A program made the position numbers and the translations under genes. Below the pieces are notes generated by a model that did not search any database, was not told the origin of the DNA, and saw only the letters and a program-made list of their open reading frames with translations. Positions 17,170 through 28,352 of a DNA stretch of 64,000 bases are shown here, one piece after another. Every line of letters starts with the position of its first letter. Position 1 is the first letter of the stretch. Location of the stretch: assembly GCF_019039035.1 (NCBI RefSeq), contig NZ_JAHNZT010000011.1, positions 124,001 through 188,000 of the forward strand, written 5' to 3'. This stretch comes from Citreicoccus inhibens (lineage in GTDB: Bacteria > Myxococcota > Myxococcia > Myxococcales > Myxococcaceae).

Positions 17170-17958
17170 ATGAGCGCGTTGCTCGATGCCCTGTTGGCCT
17201 TCCCGACCGCCGTCTTCACCATCCTGCTCGGGGTGGTGTTGAGCTACTGGCTGTTCGTCATCATCGGGGCCGTGGGCATCGACGTGCTGGATGGGGACGT
17301 GCACCTGGACGTGGAGTCCGGGGCGAAGGCGGTGGGCGGCGCGCTCCAGGGCGGCGCCAAGGCGGTCGCGGGGCATGGGCACGGGGACGTTTCGCACTCG
17401 CATCTGGACGACGCGGAGGCGGCGGCGGGGCTCTTCGGACTGCTGGGCTTCAGTGGGATTCCGGTGACGGTGACGGTGAGCCTGGTGGTGTTCCTGTCCT
17501 GGGCGCTGTCGGTGGCGAGCGGGCAGGCGGTGCACGCGGCGCTGAGCGCCTTGCCCTCGGGGTTGGTGAGCGTGGGGTTGGGGCTGCTGTGCTTCATCGC
17601 GGGCACGCTGGTCGCGAGCGTGCTCGTGCGCCCGCTGCGGCCTGTCTTCGTGGCCAAGCGAGCCCCGGGCCGCGAGGAGCTGATGGGCCGCGTGTGCATC
17701 GTGTCCAGCGGCTCCGTGACGGAGCGCTTCGGCCACGGCACCTTCGAGGATGGGGGCGCGGGCCTCATCCTCAACATCGTCTGCGCCAAGGCCAACACGC
17801 TCAAGCGGGGCGAGCCGGCCCTCATCCTCGCCTACGACGCCGGCCGAGACGTCTACGAAGTGGAGCCCGTGGATTGGCTCCTGCCCGAGGAGGCGGCGCG
17901 CTTGGGGAATCCCAGCGAGGCCCAGGCCCTGGCGCGCGCACGGGCTCGCGCGCGATGA
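17170..17958 (+). CDS. YqiJ/NfeD-like OB-fold membrane protein, flotillin partner
   Basis: A 262-residue inner-membrane protein. A hydrophobic segment at residues ~10-38 (VFTILLGVVLSYWLFVIIGA) is followed by an Asp/His/Gly-rich loop (GHGHGDVSHSHLDD), two more helices (~95-150), and a C-terminal OB-fold-like soluble domain (~165-245). The layout matches E. coli YqiJ, which is encoded with the flotillin YqiK. The flotillin gene follows 125 bases downstream. In related NfeD-flotillin pairs the OB-fold protein anchors or regulates flotillin assemblies; that role is inferred. The His-rich loop could bind metal. Confidence 0.8.
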   Translation: MSALLDALLAFPTAVFTILLGVVLSYWLFVIIGAVGIDVLDGDVHLDVESGAKAVGGALQGGAKAVAGHGHGDVSHSHLDDAEAAAGLFGLLGFSGIPVTVTVSLVVFLSWALSVASGQAVHAALSALPSGLVSVGLGLLCFIAGTLVASVLVRPLRPVFVAKRAPGREELMGRVCIVSSGSVTERFGHGTFEDGGAGLILNIVCAKANTLKRGEPALILAYDAGRDVYEVEPVDWLLPEEAARLGNPSEAQALARARARAR

Positions 17959-18083
17959 GTCGTTGAATCGTTTCGCATCGCGACCCGACTGGCGGGCCGA
18001 TGTGACATCTCGCTCCGGAGCGCTTTCGCGGGGGACTCCGGGGCCTTGGTACAAGGCCCGCCCACTACTTCACAGGAAAGGCC

Positions 18084-20243
18084 ATGGATCCCATCACGCT
18101 GGTCGCCATCATTGGTGGCGGAGTCATCATCCTCTTCGGCATCTTCGTCACGGTCGCCAAGTTCTACCGGCAGGTCGACCAGGGCAAGGTGCTCATCGTC
18201 AACACGCTGAAGAGCGAGCCCGTCGTCACGTTCACCGGCTCCGTGGTGCTGCCCATCGTGCACCGCGCCGAGGTGATGGACATCTCGCTGAAGACGGTGG
18301 AGATCGATCGGCGCGGCAAGGAAGGCCTCATCTGCAAGGACAACATCCGCGCGGACATCAAGGTCACCTTCTTCGTGCGCGTGAACAAGACGCGCGAGGA
18401 CGTGCTCAAGGTGGCCCAGTCCATCGGGTGCGTGCGCGCCAGCGATCACCAGACGCTGGAGAACCTCTTCGAGGCCAAGTTCTCCGAGGCGCTCAAGACG
18501 GTGGGCAAGAGCTTCGACTTCGAGGAGCTCTACACCAAGCGTGAGGAGATCAAGGACCAGGTGGTGCGTGTCGTCGGTCGCGACCTCAACGGCTACATGC
18601 TGGAGGACTGCGCCATCGACTTCCTGGAGCAGACCCCGGTCGAGATGCTGGACAAGGACAACATCCTCGACGCGCAGGGCATCCGGAAGATCACCCAGCT
18701 CACCACCGAGCAGAACGTCTTCACCAACGAGCTGCGCCAGAGCGAGCGCCTGGCCGTCACCAAGCGCAACGTGGAGGCCGATGAGGCCATCTTCGCGCTG
18801 GAGCGCCAGCGCCAGGAGGCCGCGGCCAAGCAGAAGCGGGAGATCGAGAGCATCCAGGCCCGTGAGACGGCCGAGGCCGACCGCGTGAAGAGCGAGGAGC
18901 ACGCCAAGGCGGAGCTGGCGCGCATCAAGGCCGAAGAGGAGATCCTCATCACCGAGCAGAACAAGTCCCGGCAGGTGGAGGTCGCGCAGAAGAACCGCGA
19001 GCGCGTGGTGGGCGTGGAGTCCGAGCGCGTGGAGAAGGACCGCGCCCTGGAGGCCATCAACCGCGAGCGTGAGACGGAGTTGCAGCGCATCGCCAAGGAG
19101 AAGGCGGTCGAGGGCGAGAAGAAGCTCATCGCGGATGTGGTGCGCGCCCGCGTCGCCGTCGACAAGACGGTGGCCGAGGAGGAGGAGCGCATCAAGGACC
19201 TGCGCGTGACGGCCGAGGCCCGCCGCAAGAAGGACGCGCTGGTCATCACCGCCGAGGGGCAGGCCCAGGAGAAGCTCGTCAAGGATCTCAAGGCGGCGGA
19301 GACGAGCGCGGACGTGGCGAAGTTCACCGCGCGCGAGAAGCTCACCCTGGCGGACGCGGACCTGGAGGCCGCGGACAAGACGGCCAAGGCGAAGATGCGG
19401 CTGGCCGAGGGCGTCCAGGCCGAGGCTGCCGCGGAGGGGCTCGCGAACGTGCGCGTCCGCGAGGCGGACGCGGTGGCCACCGAGAAGCAGGGCATGGCGC
19501 AGGTGCGCGTGAAGGAGGCCGAGGCCAGCGCCATCGAGAAGCAGGGCCAGGCCCAGGCCGTGGTCGTCCGGGAGCGCCTGCTCGCGGAGGCCGCCGGTGC
19601 CCAGGAGAAGGGCATGGTGAGCGCCCGCATCCAGGAGGCCGAGGCCAGCGCCATCCACAAGCGCGGTGAGGCCGAGGCGTTCGCCACGAAGGAGAAGCTG
19701 CTCGCGGAGGCCGCCGCCATCCAGGAGAAGCTCATGGCCGAGGCGCGCGGTCTGGCCGAGAAGGCCGCCGCGATGAAGGCCCTGGACGGGGTGGGGCGCG
19801 AGCACGAGGAGTTCCGGCTGCGGCTCCAGAAGGAGCGCGACGTGGAGCTGGAGTCCATCCGCGTGCGCAGGGACATCGCCCACGCGCAGGCGGAGGTGCT
19901 CTCCAAGGCGCTCGCCAACGCGAAGTTCCAGATCGTCGGCGGCGACGGCGAGTTCTTCGAGCGCTTCGTCAAGGCGGTCTCGTTCGGCACCTCGGTGGAC
20001 GGCGCGCTGGACCACAGCGAGTCGCTCAAGAAGGCGCTGGGGGGCTACCTCACCGGTGAGAAGGATCTGCCGTCGGACCTCAAGGAGATCCTCTCCAAGC
20101 CCGGCCTCACGAATGACGTGCAGAACCTGGCCGTGGCCGCGCTGCTCAACCGCATGAACGTCAACCCCACCGCCTCCGCCGCGAGCAACCTCAAGGCGCT
20201 GGTGAACGCTGACGGCCAGTCCTCGAGCGACAAGCAGGGCTGA
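18084..20243 (+). CDS. Flotillin family protein (YqiK-like)
   Basis: A 719-residue protein: one N-terminal membrane helix (ITLVAIIGGGVIILFGIFV), an SPFH/band-7 domain (~25-200), and a very long charged Ala/Glu/Lys/Arg coiled coil (~210-600) with repeated EAEA and EKQGQAQ units. A helical C-terminal tail follows. Such proteins oligomerise into membrane scaffolds or cages. It is flanked by a YqiJ-like OB-fold protein upstream and a giant AAA+ ATPase downstream, all on one strand. A terminator-like hairpin separates it from the ATPase gene, which may set the protein ratio. The unusual length comes from the extended coiled coil. Confidence 0.9.
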   Translation: MDPITLVAIIGGGVIILFGIFVTVAKFYRQVDQGKVLIVNTLKSEPVVTFTGSVVLPIVHRAEVMDISLKTVEIDRRGKEGLICKDNIRADIKVTFFVRVNKTREDVLKVAQSIGCVRASDHQTLENLFEAKFSEALKTVGKSFDFEELYTKREEIKDQVVRVVGRDLNGYMLEDCAIDFLEQTPVEMLDKDNILDAQGIRKITQLTTEQNVFTNELRQSERLAVTKRNVEADEAIFALERQRQEAAAKQKREIESIQARETAEADRVKSEEHAKAELARIKAEEEILITEQNKSRQVEVAQKNRERVVGVESERVEKDRALEAINRERETELQRIAKEKAVEGEKKLIADVVRARVAVDKTVAEEEERIKDLRVTAEARRKKDALVITAEGQAQEKLVKDLKAAETSADVAKFTAREKLTLADADLEAADKTAKAKMRLAEGVQAEAAAEGLANVRVREADAVATEKQGMAQVRVKEAEASAIEKQGQAQAVVVRERLLAEAAGAQEKGMVSARIQEAEASAIHKRGEAEAFATKEKLLAEAAAIQEKLMAEARGLAEKAAAMKALDGVGREHEEFRLRLQKERDVELESIRVRRDIAHAQAEVLSKALANAKFQIVGGDGEFFERFVKAVSFGTSVDGALDHSESLKKALGGYLTGEKDLPSDLKEILSKPGLTNDVQNLAVAALLNRMNVNPTASAASNLKALVNADGQSSSDKQG

Positions 20244-20267
20244 GCTGCACGCCAGGTGGTTGGGACA

Positions 20268-20295
20268 GGGGGCCCGCACGTGGGCCCCCTTTGTT
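20268..20295 (+). terminator. GC-rich hairpin between flotillin and ATPase genes
   Basis: AGGGGGCCC (20268-20276) pairs with GGGCCCCCT (20283-20291) around a 6-base loop and is followed by TTTGTT. It could stop most flotillin transcripts while allowing some read-through into the ATPase gene 30 bases later. Confidence 0.75.
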
Positions 20296-20327
20296 GAGAC
20301 GCAGTCTGTTCTATCCGGTGGATCTTC

Positions 20328-23300
20328 ATGGCAACTGGCGGCGACAGGGCCTCGGGCGAGGTGACGCTGGAGGGTGGCAGCTACGAGGTCATCCGCGCGC
20401 GCTTGCTGGCGCACGCGGACGCGCTGGCGACTCAGGCGAATGACCTCAACGCGCGGCGCAAGACGCTGTTCGGCGGCACGGAGTTGTCCGTCATCGGCAA
20501 CGAGCGCGTGCGCACCGAGAACAACTGCGTCCCGCGCGACGTCGTCAGCGTCGGCAAGTACGTCCTCTTTGGCTACAACGTCTTCATCGGGCTGAAGAAG
20601 GAGACGGCCGTCTCGGACGTCTTCTCGCTGCACCGCTTCGAGTCGACGGCCGAGGGCTTCGACCTGTCCGCCGTGCCGCCCACCGAGGCCGGGGGCTTCC
20701 TGGCGGACCCGCGGTTCGTGAAGGACTTCGGGGAGCTGTACAAATACTACAAGGACACGCGGCTCATTCAGCTCCGGCGCCGCGACTCGCGCCTGCTGGC
20801 CGTCTTTCAGACGGGGCAGTCCGCGCGGGATGTGAAGGTGTTCCGCTTCAACGTGGATGTGGAGGGCCGCGCCACGTACCTGGACAACCAGGGCGAGCGC
20901 GACCACGTCTTCCCACCCGCGCAGGACTTCGAGTGGACGGTGGCCACGCGTGAGCACTACGTGCTCGGCCAGCACCCGCACGTCAACGTGTTGGATCAGG
21001 TCTTCGTCGAGACGGTGAAGGGCGACCTCACCGTCAAGGTGGAGAACAACACCACCACGGGCCTGGGCATCTACAGCGAGCCGGTGGAGGATCCGGATCA
21101 GTCGCTCGATGACGCCGAGTTCGCCTGGGCGCAGGTGGGCGGCCTCATCCTGCTGCGCGTGCTGCCCTTCCGCGAGAAGGCGCACCGCTACCTCGTCTTC
21201 AACTCGCGCACCCATCACGTGGTGCGCATTGATGCCATCGGCCAGTCCTGCGTGCGGCTGCCGGAGGACCAGGGCATCGTCTTCCCGGGCGGCTACTATC
21301 TCCAGACGGGGGACTTCAAGGTCTTCGAGGGCGCGGCCGATGGGATGGAGTTTCATCAGGCGGTGCGCTCGCCCAACGGTGAGGACGTCCTCTACGTCTT
21401 CCATCGCCGCGACGAGGGCGCGTACGTGTTGTTCGCGTACAACCTCGTGCGCAAGGAGGTCCAGAACCCGCTCGTATGCCACGGCATGAGCCTCTTCGCG
21501 GACGGGCGCCTGGTCGTCTTCCGCGCGACCTCGGCCGAGCCCACCCGCGTGCATCCGATGCAGGTGTGGCAGACGCCGTTCGTCTCGGCGGAATATGCCG
21601 CCGCGACGCCTCCGGTGCCGGGCTACCTGGGCAAGGTGGGCAACGCGGAGTTGGTGCGAGGCATCTCGGACGCGCTGACGCTCCAGCGCATCGCGAAGAC
21701 GGAACAGCCGTCGCGGCGCACGTACGAGGACCTGGTCTCCGCGGCCACGCGCGCGCTGGATGCGTACTACTGGCTCAACCACGCGGAGGTGGGGCTCCAG
21801 TCGCACGTCGAGCAGCTTCGCCGCACCGCCGAGCTCATCATCGATGAGTTCGAGAAGGTGCTCGCGCTGCGCCGTCGCGCCACCGACTCGCTCGCCGAGG
21901 CGGAGAAGAAGCAGGACGCGCTGCTGCTCCAGGTGCAGCCCGAGGGGCTCGTGGATGCGGAGGGCTACATGCGCGCGTTGGCGGAGTTGCGCCAGCATCG
22001 CGGTCACCTCATCACCCTCAAGGACATCCGCTACATGAACGTGGCGCGGGTGGACGTCCTGGAGGCCGCCGTGGAGGAGGCCTCGGGCCGCGTCAGTACC
22101 GCGTGCGTGGACTTTCTCCAGAAGGGCGAGGCGCTTCAGCCCATCGCCCGGCGCCTCGATGAGCTGCTGGGGCGCTTGGAGCCCATCACCACCACGCTGG
22201 AGCTGGCGCCGCTGACGCAGGACGTGGAGACGACGGGCAAGGGACTGGAGGTGTTGGGCGAGGTGGTGGGCGGACTCCAAGTGGGAGACCCGCTGGCGAG
22301 GGCTCGCATCCTGGAGGGCATCTCCGAGCTGTTCAGTCGGGTCAACCGCGTGCGCGCGGGCGTCCAGGCTCGGCGCAAGGAGCTGAGCGGCAAGGAGAAG
22401 CGCGCGGAGTTCGGCGCCCAGTTCAAGCTCCTGGGCCAGAGTATCGAGAGCGCGCTGACGCAGTCGGATACGCCCGCGCGTTGCGACGAGGCGCTGTCTC
22501 GGCTGACGGTGCTCCTGGAGGAACTGGAAGGGCGCTTCGGGGAGTTCGACGAGTTCCTCGGGCAGATCACCCAGAAGCGCGAGGAGCTGCTGGAGGCTTT
22601 CGGCTCCAGGAAGCAGGCGCTGGTGGACGAGCGCCAGCGCCGGGCGAGCAGCCTGTTCAGCGCGGCCGAGCGCATCCTCCAAGGCGTCCAGCGGCGGGCG
22701 AGGTCGTTCCCGTCGGATGACGCGCTGAACGCGTACTTCGCCTCGGACGCGATGATCCAGAAGCTCCGGCAGCTCGCCGAGCAGCTCCTGGAGCTACAGG
22801 ACAGCGTTCGCGCGGATGAAGTCCTGTCGCGCGTGAAGTCCGCCAAGCAGGAGGCCCTGCGCGCCCTGCGCGATCGCCAGGACCTCTTCGAGGGCGGCGA
22901 GGGACTCATCAAGCTTGGGCCCTATCGGTTCCACGTCAACACGCAGTCGCTCGACCTGACCTTGATCCCGCGCGATGGCGCGCTCTTTCTCCAGCTCACC
23001 GGCACGGACTACACGCGGAAGCTGGAGGACCCCGAGCTGCTCAAGTACCGCGACCTCTGGGAACAGCACCTCGTGTCGGAGTCGGCCGCGGTGTACCGCG
23101 CCGAGTATCTGGCCGCGTGCGTGCTCTCGGCCGCGGAGGCGGGGGAGCGGGGCAGTTCGTTGTCCTCGCTCCAGGAGGCGGTCGCGCAGGGCACGCTGCT
23201 GGAGAAGGTGCGTGCGCTCGCGTCGGAGCGATTCGACGAGGGCTATGAGCGCGGCGTCCACGATGCGGACGCCGCGGCCATCCTGGAGAAGTTGCTGGGG

Positions 23301-25775
23301 CTGTATCAGGGCGCGGGCCTGCTGCGGTTCGCTCCGACAGCGCGGGCCTGGGCGGCGCTGTATTGGGCCTTTGACTCGGACGAGGCGGCGCGCGCGGTGC
23401 TCCATCGCCGGGCACGCAGCCTCGCGCGGCTGCGCACGGTGTTCGCTTCTGCCTCGGAGCTGAGCGCCTTGGGTGACGCGCTGGGTGAGCGCGTCGAGGC
23501 GTTCCTCCGCGCGCACGGGCTCGCGCATTCGGAGGCGGATGCGCGGCAGGCGGGGCGCTACCTCGTGGAGGAACTCGCGGTGGAGCGCCCCCGGTTCACC
23601 ACCGCGCGCGAGACGGTGACGCTGCGGGATGCGTTCCTCGCGCAGCTCGACAAGCAAGGGTCGCGCGCGGCGTTCGAGGACGACCTTCGGGGCCTGGAGA
23701 AGAACCTGCCCGAGCGGTTCCTGCTCGCGCGGGCGTGGTTGGAGGCTTCCCTGTCTCGTCGGGAGGACGGCCCGGGTGAGGCGCGGCTGCTGGTGGACGA
23801 GGCGGCGGTGCTGCTCGTCACAGAGCGCAAGCTGGAGCGCACCACGGCGGGCGCGTTGACGTCCACCGAGGTGACGGGTCTGTTGGGGAGCCACGCACGC
23901 ATCCAGGATCGGAAGCTGGTGCTGCGGTTGGATGAGTATCTGGCGCGGCTGGAGGCGTTCCGCCGGACGCGCGTGCCCGCGTACCTCGCGTACCGCGGAC
24001 TGCTGAGGGACTTGCTGGAGCGCGAGCGGCGCACGCTGCGCTTGGAAGAGCTGACGCCCAAGGTGCTGACCAGCTTCGTGCGCAACCGCCTCATCGATGA
24101 GGTGTACCTGCCGCTCATCGGCGCGAACCTCGCGAAGCAGCTCGGGGCGGCGGGGGAGGGCAAGCGCACGGACCGCATGGGCATGCTCTTGCTCATGTCT
24201 CCGCCGGGCTACGGCAAGACGACGTTGATGGAGTACGTCGCCAGCCGCTTGGGCCTCACCTTCGTGAAGGTGAACGGTCCGGCGCTGGGCCACGCGGTGA
24301 AGTCGCTGGATCCCGCCGAGGCGCCCAACGCCACCGCGCGGCAGGAGGTGGAGCGCATCAACCTGTCCTTCGAGATGGGCAACAACGTGATGCTCTACCT
24401 CGACGACATCCAGCACACGGATCCGGAGCTGCTCCAGAAGTTCATCTCGCTGTGCGACGGCCAGCGCCGCATCGAGGGGGTCTGGGAGGGCCGCACGCGC
24501 ACATATGACCTGCGCGGCAAGAAGTTCTGCGTGGTGATGGCGGGCAACCCCTACACCGAGACGGGTGAGCGCTTCCGCATCCCGGACATGCTCGCCAACC
24601 GCGCGGATACCTACAACCTGGGCGACATCCTCGACGGCAAGGAGGACCTCTTCGCGCTGAGCTACCTGGAGAACTCGCTGACCTCCAACGCGGTGCTCGC
24701 GCCGTTGGCGACGCGGGACCCGGGCGACGTGCACCGCCTGTTGCGCATGGCGAAGGGGGAAGAGGTGCCCTCGGGCGAGCTGAAGCACGGCTACTCGGCG
24801 GCGGAGCTCCAGGAAGTCATCGCGGTGTTCCAGCGCCTCTTCCATGTGCAGCGCGTGCTGCTGAAGGTGAACCTCCAGTACATCGCCTCGGCTGCACAGG
24901 ACGAGCGCTTCCGGTCGGAGCCCGCGTTCAAGTTGCAGGGCAGCTACCGCAACATGAACAAGCTCGCGGAGAAGGTCGTCGCGGCGATGACCGACGAGGA
25001 GCTGGAGCGGCGCATCGACGACCACTACCAGGGCGAGTCCCAGACGCTGACCACCGCGGCGGAGCAGAACCTGCTCAAGCTCGCGGAGTTGCGCGGGCGA
25101 CTGAGCGAGGAGAAGGCGAAGCGCTGGGAGGAGATCAAGCAGGGCTTCGCGCGCGTCAAGCGCATGGGGGGCAAGGAGGACGACCCCGTGGCGCGCGTCA
25201 CCGGACAGCTCGGGGCCATCGAGGAGCGGCTCGGCGCCGTGCGCGATGCGCTCCTGGAGGCCGCCTCGCATGCGCGGCCCGCCGCGGCGGCGCAGGACAC
25301 GCTGGCGCCTCGGCTCGATTCGCTGCGGGAGGCGCTGCTCGATGTGGCGCGCTCGGGCGCGGAGGCTTCCGTGCCGCAGCCCGCGCCCGCGTTGGACCTG
25401 TCGCCCTACGTGAAGCACCTGGCCCAACTGCTCAAGGCGCTCACCGAGCGTGCCGCCGCTCCCCTCGTGGCTGCTCCGGTGAGTGCTCCGGACGTCAGTC
25501 CGCACCTGGCCGAGCTGACCCGGGCCATTGCCTCCCTGGCCGAGCGCCCGGCCACGGTCACCGTGACTCCCTCCGAGCCCGTGGCGCGCGGCGGGGCGGC
25601 ACCGTCACCCGCGGAGCTGAGCCGGCAGATCGAGCTGGTGGAGGGCGCGCTCCTTCCTCTGGAGCGCGCGTCTCGGCGCGCCATTCAAGGTGAGGAGGAG
25701 GCCGTCAAGGCGCTCCAGGTCTGGCAGGGCGTGACGGAGGCGCTGGAAGTGTTGCGCGGGATGCTGCGCAGATAG
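20328..25775 (+). CDS. Giant DUF3686 / AAA+ ATPase ('DNA repair ATPase' family)
   Basis: An 1815-residue cytoplasmic protein. The first ~450 residues resemble DUF3686, with repeated beta-rich segments suggesting a propeller. Residues ~470-900 are coiled-coil helices, and ~900-1250 helical repeats. An AAA+ module follows: Walker A PPGYGKTT near 1290, Walker B VMLYLDDIQH near 1354, a sensor-1 Asn in VVMAGNPYTE, and conserved LANRAD. The tail is coiled coil with Ala/Pro linkers. Databases label this family as a DNA repair ATPase, but nothing here shows a DNA role; the flotillin and OB-fold neighbours point to a membrane-associated machine. The ATG at 20328 follows a weak Shine-Dalgarno. Confidence 0.82.
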   Translation: MATGGDRASGEVTLEGGSYEVIRARLLAHADALATQANDLNARRKTLFGGTELSVIGNERVRTENNCVPRDVVSVGKYVLFGYNVFIGLKKETAVSDVFSLHRFESTAEGFDLSAVPPTEAGGFLADPRFVKDFGELYKYYKDTRLIQLRRRDSRLLAVFQTGQSARDVKVFRFNVDVEGRATYLDNQGERDHVFPPAQDFEWTVATREHYVLGQHPHVNVLDQVFVETVKGDLTVKVENNTTTGLGIYSEPVEDPDQSLDDAEFAWAQVGGLILLRVLPFREKAHRYLVFNSRTHHVVRIDAIGQSCVRLPEDQGIVFPGGYYLQTGDFKVFEGAADGMEFHQAVRSPNGEDVLYVFHRRDEGAYVLFAYNLVRKEVQNPLVCHGMSLFADGRLVVFRATSAEPTRVHPMQVWQTPFVSAEYAAATPPVPGYLGKVGNAELVRGISDALTLQRIAKTEQPSRRTYEDLVSAATRALDAYYWLNHAEVGLQSHVEQLRRTAELIIDEFEKVLALRRRATDSLAEAEKKQDALLLQVQPEGLVDAEGYMRALAELRQHRGHLITLKDIRYMNVARVDVLEAAVEEASGRVSTACVDFLQKGEALQPIARRLDELLGRLEPITTTLELAPLTQDVETTGKGLEVLGEVVGGLQVGDPLARARILEGISELFSRVNRVRAGVQARRKELSGKEKRAEFGAQFKLLGQSIESALTQSDTPARCDEALSRLTVLLEELEGRFGEFDEFLGQITQKREELLEAFGSRKQALVDERQRRASSLFSAAERILQGVQRRARSFPSDDALNAYFASDAMIQKLRQLAEQLLELQDSVRADEVLSRVKSAKQEALRALRDRQDLFEGGEGLIKLGPYRFHVNTQSLDLTLIPRDGALFLQLTGTDYTRKLEDPELLKYRDLWEQHLVSESAAVYRAEYLAACVLSAAEAGERGSSLSSLQEAVAQGTLLEKVRALASERFDEGYERGVHDADAAAILEKLLGLYQGAGLLRFAPTARAWAALYWAFDSDEAARAVLHRRARSLARLRTVFASASELSALGDALGERVEAFLRAHGLAHSEADARQAGRYLVEELAVERPRFTTARETVTLRDAFLAQLDKQGSRAAFEDDLRGLEKNLPERFLLARAWLEASLSRREDGPGEARLLVDEAAVLLVTERKLERTTAGALTSTEVTGLLGSHARIQDRKLVLRLDEYLARLEAFRRTRVPAYLAYRGLLRDLLERERRTLRLEELTPKVLTSFVRNRLIDEVYLPLIGANLAKQLGAAGEGKRTDRMGMLLLMSPPGYGKTTLMEYVASRLGLTFVKVNGPALGHAVKSLDPAEAPNATARQEVERINLSFEMGNNVMLYLDDIQHTDPELLQKFISLCDGQRRIEGVWEGRTRTYDLRGKKFCVVMAGNPYTETGERFRIPDMLANRADTYNLGDILDGKEDLFALSYLENSLTSNAVLAPLATRDPGDVHRLLRMAKGEEVPSGELKHGYSAAELQEVIAVFQRLFHVQRVLLKVNLQYIASAAQDERFRSEPAFKLQGSYRNMNKLAEKVVAAMTDEELERRIDDHYQGESQTLTTAAEQNLLKLAELRGRLSEEKAKRWEEIKQGFARVKRMGGKEDDPVARVTGQLGAIEERLGAVRDALLEAASHARPAAAAQDTLAPRLDSLREALLDVARSGAEASVPQPAPALDLSPYVKHLAQLLKALTERAAAPLVAAPVSAPDVSPHLAELTRAIASLAERPATVTVTPSEPVARGGAAPSPAELSRQIELVEGALLPLERASRRAIQGEEEAVKALQVWQGVTEALEVLRGMLRR

Positions 25776-25784
25776 GCCCGCGGC

Positions 25785-26474
25785 TCATTTGAACTGCGCG
25801 CTGCCCGGGACGCTGGCGTTGTCGAGCACCTTGGGCAGCGTGTCGGTGAGTTGCTGGCCGTCGCTCGCGGTGACGCGCACCTGGAAGCTGCCCGTGCCCA
25901 CGCCGCTCGTCGCGACGAAGTAGTTGTAGTCCTCGCGCGCAATGGCCTTCCAGTCGCCGTCTCGTTTCCACTCGAGCTTCTGGATGGGCAGCCGGTGGTT
26001 GCGAATCTGGAGGGCCGTCCAGTCCGGGTTGCTGCCGTCCTTGAAGTGGTACTCGATGTTGCCGGCCACGTCGCAGGACACGGGCGTCCACGAGATGTCC
26101 ACGCGACCCAGGCTCATGTCCGCGACCTTCGCGAACGCCTCGCGGCTGAGGTCCAGGTGGCCCTTATCGCAGTCCGGGCACTGGTCGACGATGCGCACGC
26201 GCACCGTGCCCTTGGGGCCCACCACGTCGACGCACTGGCCGCACGTAGCGCTTCGCGCGTACTGCGCGGTGTTGATGGCGGCCACCATCAAGTCGCCGTT
26301 GGGCTCGAAGCTGCAGTTCCCCGCGCCCGTCGCGTTGTAGAAGGTGGCGATGCCCTTCTGCTGCTCGCCCAGCGGGAGACCTCCGCCGGAGGGGTCATCT
26401 CCACAGGCGACCCCGGCCAGCAGGGCGGTGGAGGCCAACGACACGGCGAGGGGCGAGGCGGAGCGTCGGTTCAT
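25785..26474 (-). CDS. Expansin-like lipoprotein
   Basis: A 229-residue protein starting MNRRSASPLAVSLASTALLA with a lipobox (LLAGVACGDD). Residues ~35-135 form a double-psi beta-barrel (GIATFYNATGAGNCSF, CGQCVDVVGPKGTVRVRIVD, HLDLSREAF), and the C-terminal ~90 residues a beta-sandwich with aromatic positions. This is the bacterial EXLX1 layout, which loosens polysaccharide contacts without hydrolysis. In a soil predator it may act on plant or fungal walls or on peptidoglycan. It is convergent with the giant ATPase gene, nine bases apart. Confidence 0.85.
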   Translation of the reverse strand: MNRRSASPLAVSLASTALLAGVACGDDPSGGGLPLGEQQKGIATFYNATGAGNCSFEPNGDLMVAAINTAQYARSATCGQCVDVVGPKGTVRVRIVDQCPDCDKGHLDLSREAFAKVADMSLGRVDISWTPVSCDVAGNIEYHFKDGSNPDWTALQIRNHRLPIQKLEWKRDGDWKAIAREDYNYFVATSGVGTGSFQVRVTASDGQQLTDTLPKVLDNASVPGSAQFK

Positions 26475-26570
26475 GCGCGCGAGCATACACGCCGCACGAA
26501 GGACGCCGCCCACGCCCGAGCAGGTCGGACGTGGGCGGTGTTACCCCTGGGGCGTGACGCCCCCCGGACG

Positions 26571-28352
26571 TCAGTTGCCGCGTGCCGAGGCGCTGGTGAG
26601 CGCGCGGGCTTGTGTCACCAACCGAACGAACTCGGTGCGGTCCGCGTCGCCGTTGGCCGCGCCCTCGGCCAGCTTCTGCGTGGTGCTCAGGCTCCAGCCC
26701 TCCGCGGCGGGCGCGGCGCGGAGGATGTCCGCGGTGGCGGCCACGGCGAGCGCGAAGCGGAAGTCCGGCGAGGCCTCGTCCAGCGAGGTGTGCACCAGCG
26801 CGCGGGTGAGCGGGAAGGCCTGCTCGGCGGCCTCGGTGCCGTTGGGCGCCTTGGCCCGGATGCGCACGGTGGCCAGCTCCTGCGCCGCGCCGGTCAGCTC
26901 CACCTCGTAGAGGGCGGTGACGTTGTGGCCCGCGCCAATCTCGCCGGCGTCCACCTTGTCATCGCGGAAGTCCTTGTCCGCGATGTCCCGGTTCTCGTAG
27001 CCGAGCAGGCGGTAGCGGCTCACGGTCTTCGGGTTGAACTCCACCTGGAACTTCACGTCCTTGGCGATGACCTCCAGCGTGCCGGTGAGCTGCGTCTCGA
27101 AGACCTTGCGCGCCTCCTTGAGGCTGTCCACGTAGAAGCTGTTGCCGTTGCCCTTGTCCGCCAGCTTCTCCATCAGGTCATCGCGGTAGTTGCCCATGCC
27201 GAAGCCGACCGTGGTGAGGGTGACGCCCTCGGCCACGTACTTGTGGACGCTCTCCAGCATGGCCTCCGCGCCCAGGTTGGGGCCGATGTTGGCGTCACCG
27301 TCGGTGAGCACCACGACGCGAGACACCACGCCGCCCGCGGCCTTCTTCACCGCGTGCCCGTAAGCCATTTGCATGCCCGAGCCCATCGCGGTGCCGCCGC
27401 CCGCCGACAGCGTGTCGATGGCGGAGTAGATGCGCCGGACGTCCGTGGCCGGCGTGGGGGGCAGCACGTCCCGCGTGGAGCCCGCGTAGGTGACGATGGC
27501 CACCGTGTCGTTCTCGTTGAGGTTCTTCACGGCGATCTTCATCGCCTCGCGCGCCAGGGGCAGCTTGTCCTCGGACTGCATGGAGCCGCTGGTGTCCACG
27601 AGGAAGACGAGATGCGCGGGCTTGCGCTCCGAGCGCGAGACGACCTTGCCTTGCACGCCCACGCGCAGGAAGTGGCGGCGCGGATTGAACGGCGAGGGCG
27701 CGCCCTCCAGGTGCACCGTGAAGGCGCCCGAGGTGGGCGGGGCATAGCGGTACTTGAAGTAGTTGACGAACTCCTCCACGCGCACCGCCTGCGCCGGCGG
27801 CAGCTGGCCCTGCTGCAGGTAGCGTCGCGCCACCGTGTATGAGGCGGTGTCCACGTCCGCGGCGAAGGTGGACAGGGCGTCCTTCGCGGTCTCCGTGAAG
27901 GCGTTGGGCTTGTACGCCTCGAACGTGTTGCCGCCCGTGGGCGCGCGCGCGTCATCGTCCTTGTCCTTCATGAACTTCTCGGACGCGGGGAGCTTCTTGG
28001 AGGGCGCCTCGCGGCGGACCGCCATGGGCGCGGGAGCACCGCCTGCGCTCATGGCCATGGAGGGCGCGGCCATGGGGGCCGCTTCCTTCGGCGCGGGTGG
28101 GGGCGCGGCCGCTGGCGTCATGGGCTGCGCCGCGGCGCCCGAGGCCGCCAGGGACTCGTCCTCTTCGCCATCTGCGCCTGCGGGCTTCGGGTCCGCGCGG
28201 GGGGGGCTGGAGAGGCTGCCCTGGTGGCTCGCCCGCGACGTGGGCTTCGACTCGGGCGGGGCGAGCTGCGAGGAACAGGAGGACAGCAGTCCGGCGGCCA
28301 GGATGGCGCAGCTCCAGCGGGTCGCGCGGCGCTTCTGAAAGGTCGAGGACAT
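26571..28352 (-). CDS. von Willebrand factor A lipoprotein (YfbK-like)
   Basis: A 593-residue lipoprotein (lipobox LLSSCSSQ) with a long Pro/Ala/Met-rich linker to about residue 140. A short conserved N-domain follows ([17 protein letters not shown]), then a vWA domain with the MIDAS motif DTSGSM near 250 and TDGDANIG for metal coordination, and a C-terminal beta-rich domain. Members of the YfbK group are surface or periplasmic and probably bind protein partners through a metal ion. No adjacent MoxR ATPase or protease was seen that would give it a role. Confidence 0.87.

What the first reader, a model, noticed from the sequence alone, without database searches (positions are those of the whole stretch)
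17170..25775. OB-fold membrane protein, flotillin and 1815-residue DUF3686 AAA+ ATPase as one system
Three large same-strand genes, spaced 125 and 84 bases, join a YqiJ-like anchor, a flotillin with a very long coiled coil and a giant ATPase with an apparent propeller N-terminus and intact Walker A and B. The ATPase is commonly labelled DNA repair, yet its neighbours act at the membrane. It may be a membrane remodelling or stress machine, or a defence-like module. A hairpin between genes 2 and 3 could set stoichiometry.
Basis: partly seen in the sequence, partly recalled or inferred. Interest (0 to 1): 0.78.

Follow-up and report, generated by a model that had tools for sequence, protein, structure and literature searches.

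The report
Flotillin operon with a giant ATPase
Three neighbouring genes encode a membrane anchor, a flotillin scaffold and a giant energy-using motor protein that are kept together in many distant bacteria, which points to one membrane-stress machine; the gene set was already described in 2024, but its exact job is still untested.

Summary
In detail: three same-strand genes (17170-17958, 18084-20243, 20328-25775; gaps 125 and 84 b) encode a YqiJ/NfeD-type membrane OB protein, a YqiK-like flotillin and an 1815-aa DUF3686 AAA+ ATPase. In 81 loci retrieved through the ATPase from several phyla, the flotillin lies upstream in 76; four of the other five are cut by contig ends. In genome samples from Myxococcota, Actinomycetota and Gammaproteobacteria the two genes co-occur almost perfectly. 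In one family they are unlinked yet both kept. The link is not new. Ravi et al. 2024 (PMC11237479) described this operon, with CesT/Tir-PspA in some lineages and in an abbreviated, PspA-less form that matches this window. Structure prediction supports a WD40-like propeller at the N-terminus and a motor closest to MoxR-class AAA+ (CbbQ, NorQ), so 'DNA repair' is probably a mislabel. The hairpin is shared only with one congener. No defence evidence was found. Best reading: an NfeD-flotillin membrane scaffold/holdase coupled to an ATP-driven remodeller in envelope-stress protection, related to the P. aeruginosa BAC operon. The module is shown; the mechanism is inferred.

The parts
17170..17958 (+). 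Gene 1: YqiJ/NfeD-type membrane protein, 262 aa; hydrophobic segments at about residues 1-42, 85-121 and 123-157, C-terminal OB-like domain at about 165-235 (17662-17874)
   Evidence: orthologue profile matches E. coli YqiJ E 1.7e-11; YqiJ orthologue upstream in 71 of 81 ATPase loci
18084..20243 (+). Gene 2: YqiK-like flotillin, 719 aa; TM 1-28, SPFH head about 20-230 (18141-18773), then a long Glu/Arg/Ala-rich predicted coiled coil
   Evidence: upstream orthologue in 76 of 81 ATPase loci
20328..25775 (+). Gene 3: DUF3686 AAA+ ATPase, 1815 aa
   Evidence: PF12458 E 1e-204
20475..21578 (+). WD40-like beta-propeller of gene 3 (residues 50-417)
   Evidence: AlphaFold2 model; Foldseek and VIA-align matches to WD40 propellers, Z about 10
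22128..22382 (+). DUF7902 domain within the helical middle of gene 3 (residues 601-685)
24075..25100 (+). AAA+ motor of gene 3 (about residues 1250-1591), MoxR-like by predicted fold
   Evidence: best CbbQ2 Z 17.1, NorQ Z 16.8
24198..24224 (+). Walker A, SPPGYGKTT (residues 1291-1299)
24390..24407 (+). Walker B, MLYLDD (residues 1355-1360)
20267..20290 (+). G+C hairpin in the gene 2-gene 3 gap; same stem in one congener only, probably not a conserved part of the system

Best explanation
The three genes form one conserved membrane-stress module. Gene 1 (NfeD/YqiJ type) anchors and organises oligomers of the gene 2 flotillin, giving a membrane-attached scaffold whose long coiled coil faces the cytosol and probably holds misfolded or membrane-protein clients. 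Gene 3 docks on this scaffold or on clients through its N-terminal beta-propeller and helical middle, and its MoxR-like AAA+ ring uses ATP to remodel the clients or dismantle the assembly. In some Pseudomonadota and Bacteroidota the same module carries PspA and a CesT/Tir-type chaperone; the myxobacterial copy is the abbreviated form without them. Shown here: homology, domain anatomy, operon conservation, co-occurrence. Inferred: physical contact, client holding, ATP-driven remodelling, stress role.
For: Unit: flotillin upstream of the ATPase in 76 of 81 loci, four of the five exceptions cut by contig ends; YqiJ in 71; 11 of 11 plasmid-collection loci examined, adding Deinococcota and Bacteroidota. 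Flanking genes differ between relatives while the trio stays. Co-occurrence by genome: Myxococcota sample 91 both, 2 ATPase only, 2 flotillin only, 98 neither, the four exceptions all at contig ends; Actinomycetota 5/0/0/144; Gammaproteobacteria 3/0/1/181. Family f29 keeps both genes unlinked in four genomes. Divergence of the two proteins correlates, Mantel r 0.91, 0 of 999 permutations. Motor fold closest to MoxR AAA+. Published: NfeD-flotillin is a membrane holdase in S. aureus (PMC11222466); an SPFH protein recruits PspA to the membrane in B. subtilis (PMC8581546); MoxR RavA acts at the E. coli inner membrane (PMC9489729); ATP-driven MoxR remodelling by NorQD (PMC13036017).
Against: No physical or phenotypic data on this copy. 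Deleting PaFlo3 (bacD) alone in P. aeruginosa gave only about 20% less biofilm and no other clear defect (PMC13086221). E. coli K-12 has yqiJ-yqiK with no ATPase beside them, so the scaffold pair can exist without the motor. Mantel correlation and genome counts partly reflect shared ancestry. Motor assignment rests on a predicted fold; sequence searches score classical AAA and RuvB about as well. The 81 loci were the best-scoring ones and were retrieved through Walker A/B motifs.
Confidence: 0.5

Rival explanations
1. The ATPase is the Vps4-like partner of a PspA (ESCRT-III-like) membrane coat; flotillin and YqiJ only recruit the coat to the membrane, and in myxobacteria the PspA is encoded elsewhere.
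For: PspA and a DUF2170 (YjfI) gene precede yqiJ-flotillin-ATPase in 23 of 81 loci; Ravi et al. propose ESCRT-like dynamics (PMC11237479); the own genome holds one distant PspA_IM30 gene on another contig.
Against: PspA neighbours were found only in some Pseudomonadota and Bacteroidota loci, none in the Myxococcota or Actinomycetota loci examined; the own PspA barely matches the operon-type PspA (12.8 bits); PspA systems mostly work without this ATPase; the fold is nearer MoxR than Vps4.
Confidence: 0.2
2. The ATPase is a DNA-repair enzyme, as its database name says, and its place beside flotillin is incidental.
For: Annotation 'DNA repair ATPase'; weak RuvB similarity of the P-loop; RuvB among the Foldseek hits.
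Against: Linkage and co-occurrence with membrane genes across phyla; no recombination or repair gene family among the conserved neighbours; no DNA-binding domain found; the fold second look prefers MoxR.
Confidence: 0.05
3. It is an anti-phage or other conflict module.
For: Large multidomain NTPase; patchy distribution; presence on some plasmids.
Against: No PADLOC hit beyond weak P-loop matches to IetA and a weak mad8 match; no conserved defence neighbours; no phage copies; near-constant single-copy presence in many genera of the family.
Confidence: 0.08
4. A flotillin-specific disassembly motor: gene 3 only remodels the flotillin oligomer to control membrane domain size, with no client proteins.
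For: One-to-one pairing with one flotillin subfamily (full-length heads score above 280 bits, against 182 bits or less for other flotillin-like proteins).
Against: The propeller and long helical middle suggest additional binding partners; no direct data.
Confidence: 0.15

Closest known systems
YqiJ/YuaF - TM-band-7-flotillin - propeller AAA+ ATPase operon of Ravi et al. 2024 (PMC11237479)
   Same: Same three protein types in one operon; the paper states that abbreviated PspA-less operons are widespread
   Different: The PspA and CesT/Tir genes of the full version are absent here; the paper's main text has no MoxR assignment
P. aeruginosa BAC operon bacABCDEF (PMC2587700, PMC10948618, PMC13086221)
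   Same: bacA DUF2170, bacB PspA, bacC NfeD, bacD flotillin PaFlo3, then bacE; the same order as P. composti L083, where the gene after the flotillin is the DUF3686 ATPase
   Different: Has PspA, DUF2170 and a putative sigma-54 promoter; that bacE is the ATPase is inferred from gene order, its sequence was not examined here
E. coli yqiJ-yqiK
   Same: Homologous pair
   Different: No ATPase beside them; the flotillins belong to different subfamilies
S. aureus FloA-NfeD holdase (PMC11222466)
   Same: SPFH protein with an NfeD OB partner at the membrane
   Different: Works without ATP and without a AAA+ partner
MoxR AAA+ (RavA-ViaA, NorQ-NorD, CbbQ-CbbO)
   Same: Predicted motor fold
   Different: Motor sits at the C-terminal side of a giant protein with a propeller; no conserved VWA partner

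Membership tests
Ravi 2024 YqiJ-flotillin-AAA+ operon | YqiJ/YuaF 3TM protein, flotillin and AAA+ ATPase in one same-strand operon | tested here: met
   conserved as a unit
Ravi 2024 YqiJ-flotillin-AAA+ operon | ATPase fused to N-terminal beta-propeller and helical/coiled-coil region | tested here: met
   model; folds
Ravi 2024 YqiJ-flotillin-AAA+ operon | CesT/Tir-PspA dyad in the operon (full version only) | tested here: not met
   Absent beside the window copy; one distant PspA elsewhere: the window is the abbreviated form, which the same paper also describes
Flotillin (SPFH2) | N-terminal TM, SPFH domain, coiled coil, homology to YqiK/FloT | tested here: met
   30% identity to YqiK, E 2e-35; profile E 3.8e-58; weak FloT match
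Flotillin (SPFH2) | Pfam Band_7 (PF01145) and Flot (PF15975) matches | tested here: inconclusive
   No Pfam match for the window protein or two orthologues, while E. coli YqiK matches both; divergent subfamily
MoxR AAA+ | MoxR-type AAA+ fold | tested here: met
   The ten best rows are all CbbQ or NorQ at Z 15.5-17.1, next Rea1 and dynein at 13-14, classical AAA about 13; predicted model only
MoxR AAA+ | Cognate VWA-domain partner | tested here: not met
   No VWA gene among conserved neighbours; a YfbK-like VWA gene at 26571-28352 on the other strand is shared by only 3 of 16 relatives
PSP (phage shock) system | PspA encoded in the operon | tested here: not met
Known anti-phage defence system | Match to a PADLOC family or defence neighbourhood | tested here: not met
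DNA-repair enzyme | Repair activity or DNA binding | not testable with these tools
   Only a database name and weak P-loop similarity to RuvB

The most novel reading that the evidence does not exclude
A second kind of SPFH-AAA+ machine besides HflKC-FtsH: a flotillin-NfeD membrane cage coupled to a giant MoxR-like, propeller-bearing unfoldase or remodeller with no protease, independent of PspA in myxobacteria and actinomycetes.
Probability: 0.3. Interest if true: 0.65.

Novelty: already known. Interest (0 to 1): 0.35.

Why it matters
The gene association was published, so the discovery itself is not new. It still matters that a protein named 'DNA repair ATPase' in several databases is very probably a membrane-module motor, that the pairing holds in three lineages sampled by genome and survives loss of linkage, and that the myxobacterial operon appears to be the PspA-less form of the P. 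aeruginosa biofilm-associated BAC operon. Together these give a direct test of what flotillins do with an ATP-driven partner.

Tried and rejected
Hairpin as a stoichiometry switch: rejected, same stem in one congener only, z -1.2, not scored as a terminator. Sigma-54 promoter as in the bac operon: no site just upstream of gene 1, and fewer matches in the window than in shuffles. VWA gene at 26571-28352 as a MoxR partner: rejected, opposite strand, kept in 3 of 16 relatives. Defence module: no support. Direct PDB sequence match for the flotillin: none. A full all-against-all BLAST of every ORF timed out and was redone on flanks only. One script failed on a syntax error. DUF3686 has no full-text paper in the held library. 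The sequence of P. aeruginosa bacE could not be fetched, so its identity stays inferred.

Full report
Observation. The window lies in a 9.05 Mb genome with one DUF3686 gene and one copy of this flotillin; the nearest named relative among the fetched loci is a Myxococcus.

Anatomy. Gene 1 has no Pfam match and no BLASTP match to E. coli YqiJ, but a profile of its orthologues matches YqiJ across the TM region and OB domain. Gene 2 is 30% identical to E. coli YqiK over 472 residues with one N-terminal TM segment, although no Pfam SPFH model recognises it. Gene 3 has DUF3686 at 33-481, DUF7902 at 601-685 and a AAA+ motor near 1250-1591. An AlphaFold2 model of residues 1-690 (mean pLDDT 89) shows a propeller at about 50-417 followed by long helices; best matches are WD40 propellers, Z about 10. 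A model of residues 1150-1640 (pLDDT 85) matches MoxR-class proteins best: CbbQ2 Z 17.1, NorQ 16.8, then Rea1 and dynein at 13-14 and classical AAA at about 13. Walker A and B are intact, with D in place of the usual second acidic E.

One unit. 81 DUF3686 loci (80 from a scan of bacterial genomes, plus the window) were aligned at the ATPase and their flanks clustered. The flotillin is upstream on the same strand in 76; four of the other five start at a contig end, leaving L086 (Labilithrix) as the only real exception, and its genome has the flotillin elsewhere. YqiJ is present in 71. A second, differently retrieved set, 11 of the 12 loci found through the AAA region in the plasmid collection, gave flotillin upstream in 11 of 11 and YqiJ in 10 of 11, adding Deinococcota and Bacteroidota. 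Among 16 long relatives' loci the flanking genes of the window are shared by at most 3, while genes 1 and 2 persist in 14 and the ATPase in 16.

Co-occurrence by genome. Searching the same samples for DUF3686 and for the SPFH head of this flotillin subfamily gave, as both / ATPase only / flotillin only / neither: Myxococcota 91/2/2/98, Actinomycetota 5/0/0/144, Gammaproteobacteria 3/0/1/181 (Fisher tests). The four Myxococcota exceptions sit at contig ends. These P values ignore shared ancestry, but the pattern repeats in three lineages. In family f29 the yqiJ-flotillin pair and the ATPase lie on different contigs, yet all four genomes keep both. Distances between ATPases and between flotillins correlate at r 0.91, which shared descent alone could partly explain.

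Prior work. Ravi et al. [quoted passage not shown] The window is the abbreviated form: no PspA or DUF2170 nearby, one distant PspA elsewhere. In 23 of the 81 loci, all Pseudomonadota, PspA and DUF2170 precede the trio, sometimes with rhomboid or phospholipase D-like genes after it. The P. aeruginosa BAC operon has the same order (PMC10948618; PMC13086221); P. composti, where PaFlo3 is reported to occur, has the DUF3686 gene right after the flotillin (L083). That bacE is this ATPase is inferred.

Mechanism. Established elsewhere: NfeD and flotillin form a membrane holdase (PMC11222466), SPFH proteins can recruit PspA (PMC8581546), and MoxR AAA+ proteins remodel partners (PMC13036017) and can act at the membrane (PMC9489729); for the last two and PMC8581546 only abstracts were read. 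Inferred here: the trio joins such a holdase scaffold to an ATP-driven remodeller in envelope stress. Phenotypes known from the BAC operon (biofilm, rhamnolipids, virulence) come mainly from bacA and bacB; the flotillin deletion alone is nearly silent.

Defence, DNA repair and hairpin readings. PADLOC gave only weak matches, phages none, and no defence genes recur nearby. 'DNA repair' rests on a name and weak RuvB similarity. The hairpin is not conserved.

Verdict. Real, conserved and correctly read as one system, but already published; added here are the genome-level co-occurrence counts, the unlinked f29 case, the MoxR-like motor assignment and the proposed link to the BAC operon.

Noticed in passing
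L050-L052 (ATPase) and L137, L138, L140, L141 (yqiJ-flotillin), family f29: ATPase and yqiJ-flotillin pair are unlinked but both retained in four genomes of one myxobacterial family.
   Followed up: yes
L143, pQBR103 plasmid of P. fluorescens SBW25: The flotillin-ATPase operon sits on a plasmid directly after DUF2491, DUF350, DUF1190 and glutathionylspermidine synthase genes, joining two operon types that Ravi et al. list apart.
   Followed up: partly
L083, L084, L090, L097 downstream of the ATPase: Rhomboid and phospholipase D-like genes recur after the ATPase in Pseudomonas loci.
   Followed up: partly
G455:C7:15056-15688: One gammaproteobacterial genome has this flotillin subfamily in a 402-aa frame but no DUF3686 gene; possibly a decaying operon.
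   Followed up: no
window 26571-28352 and 25785-26513, - strand: YfbK-like VWA gene and a DPBB-domain gene just downstream on the other strand, shared by only three of 16 relatives.
   Followed up: partly
several Myxococcota genomes, e.g. G008:C1:571875, G028:C63:9397: A second, more distant flotillin-like SPFH gene (140-182 bits) occurs elsewhere in some genomes.
   Followed up: no
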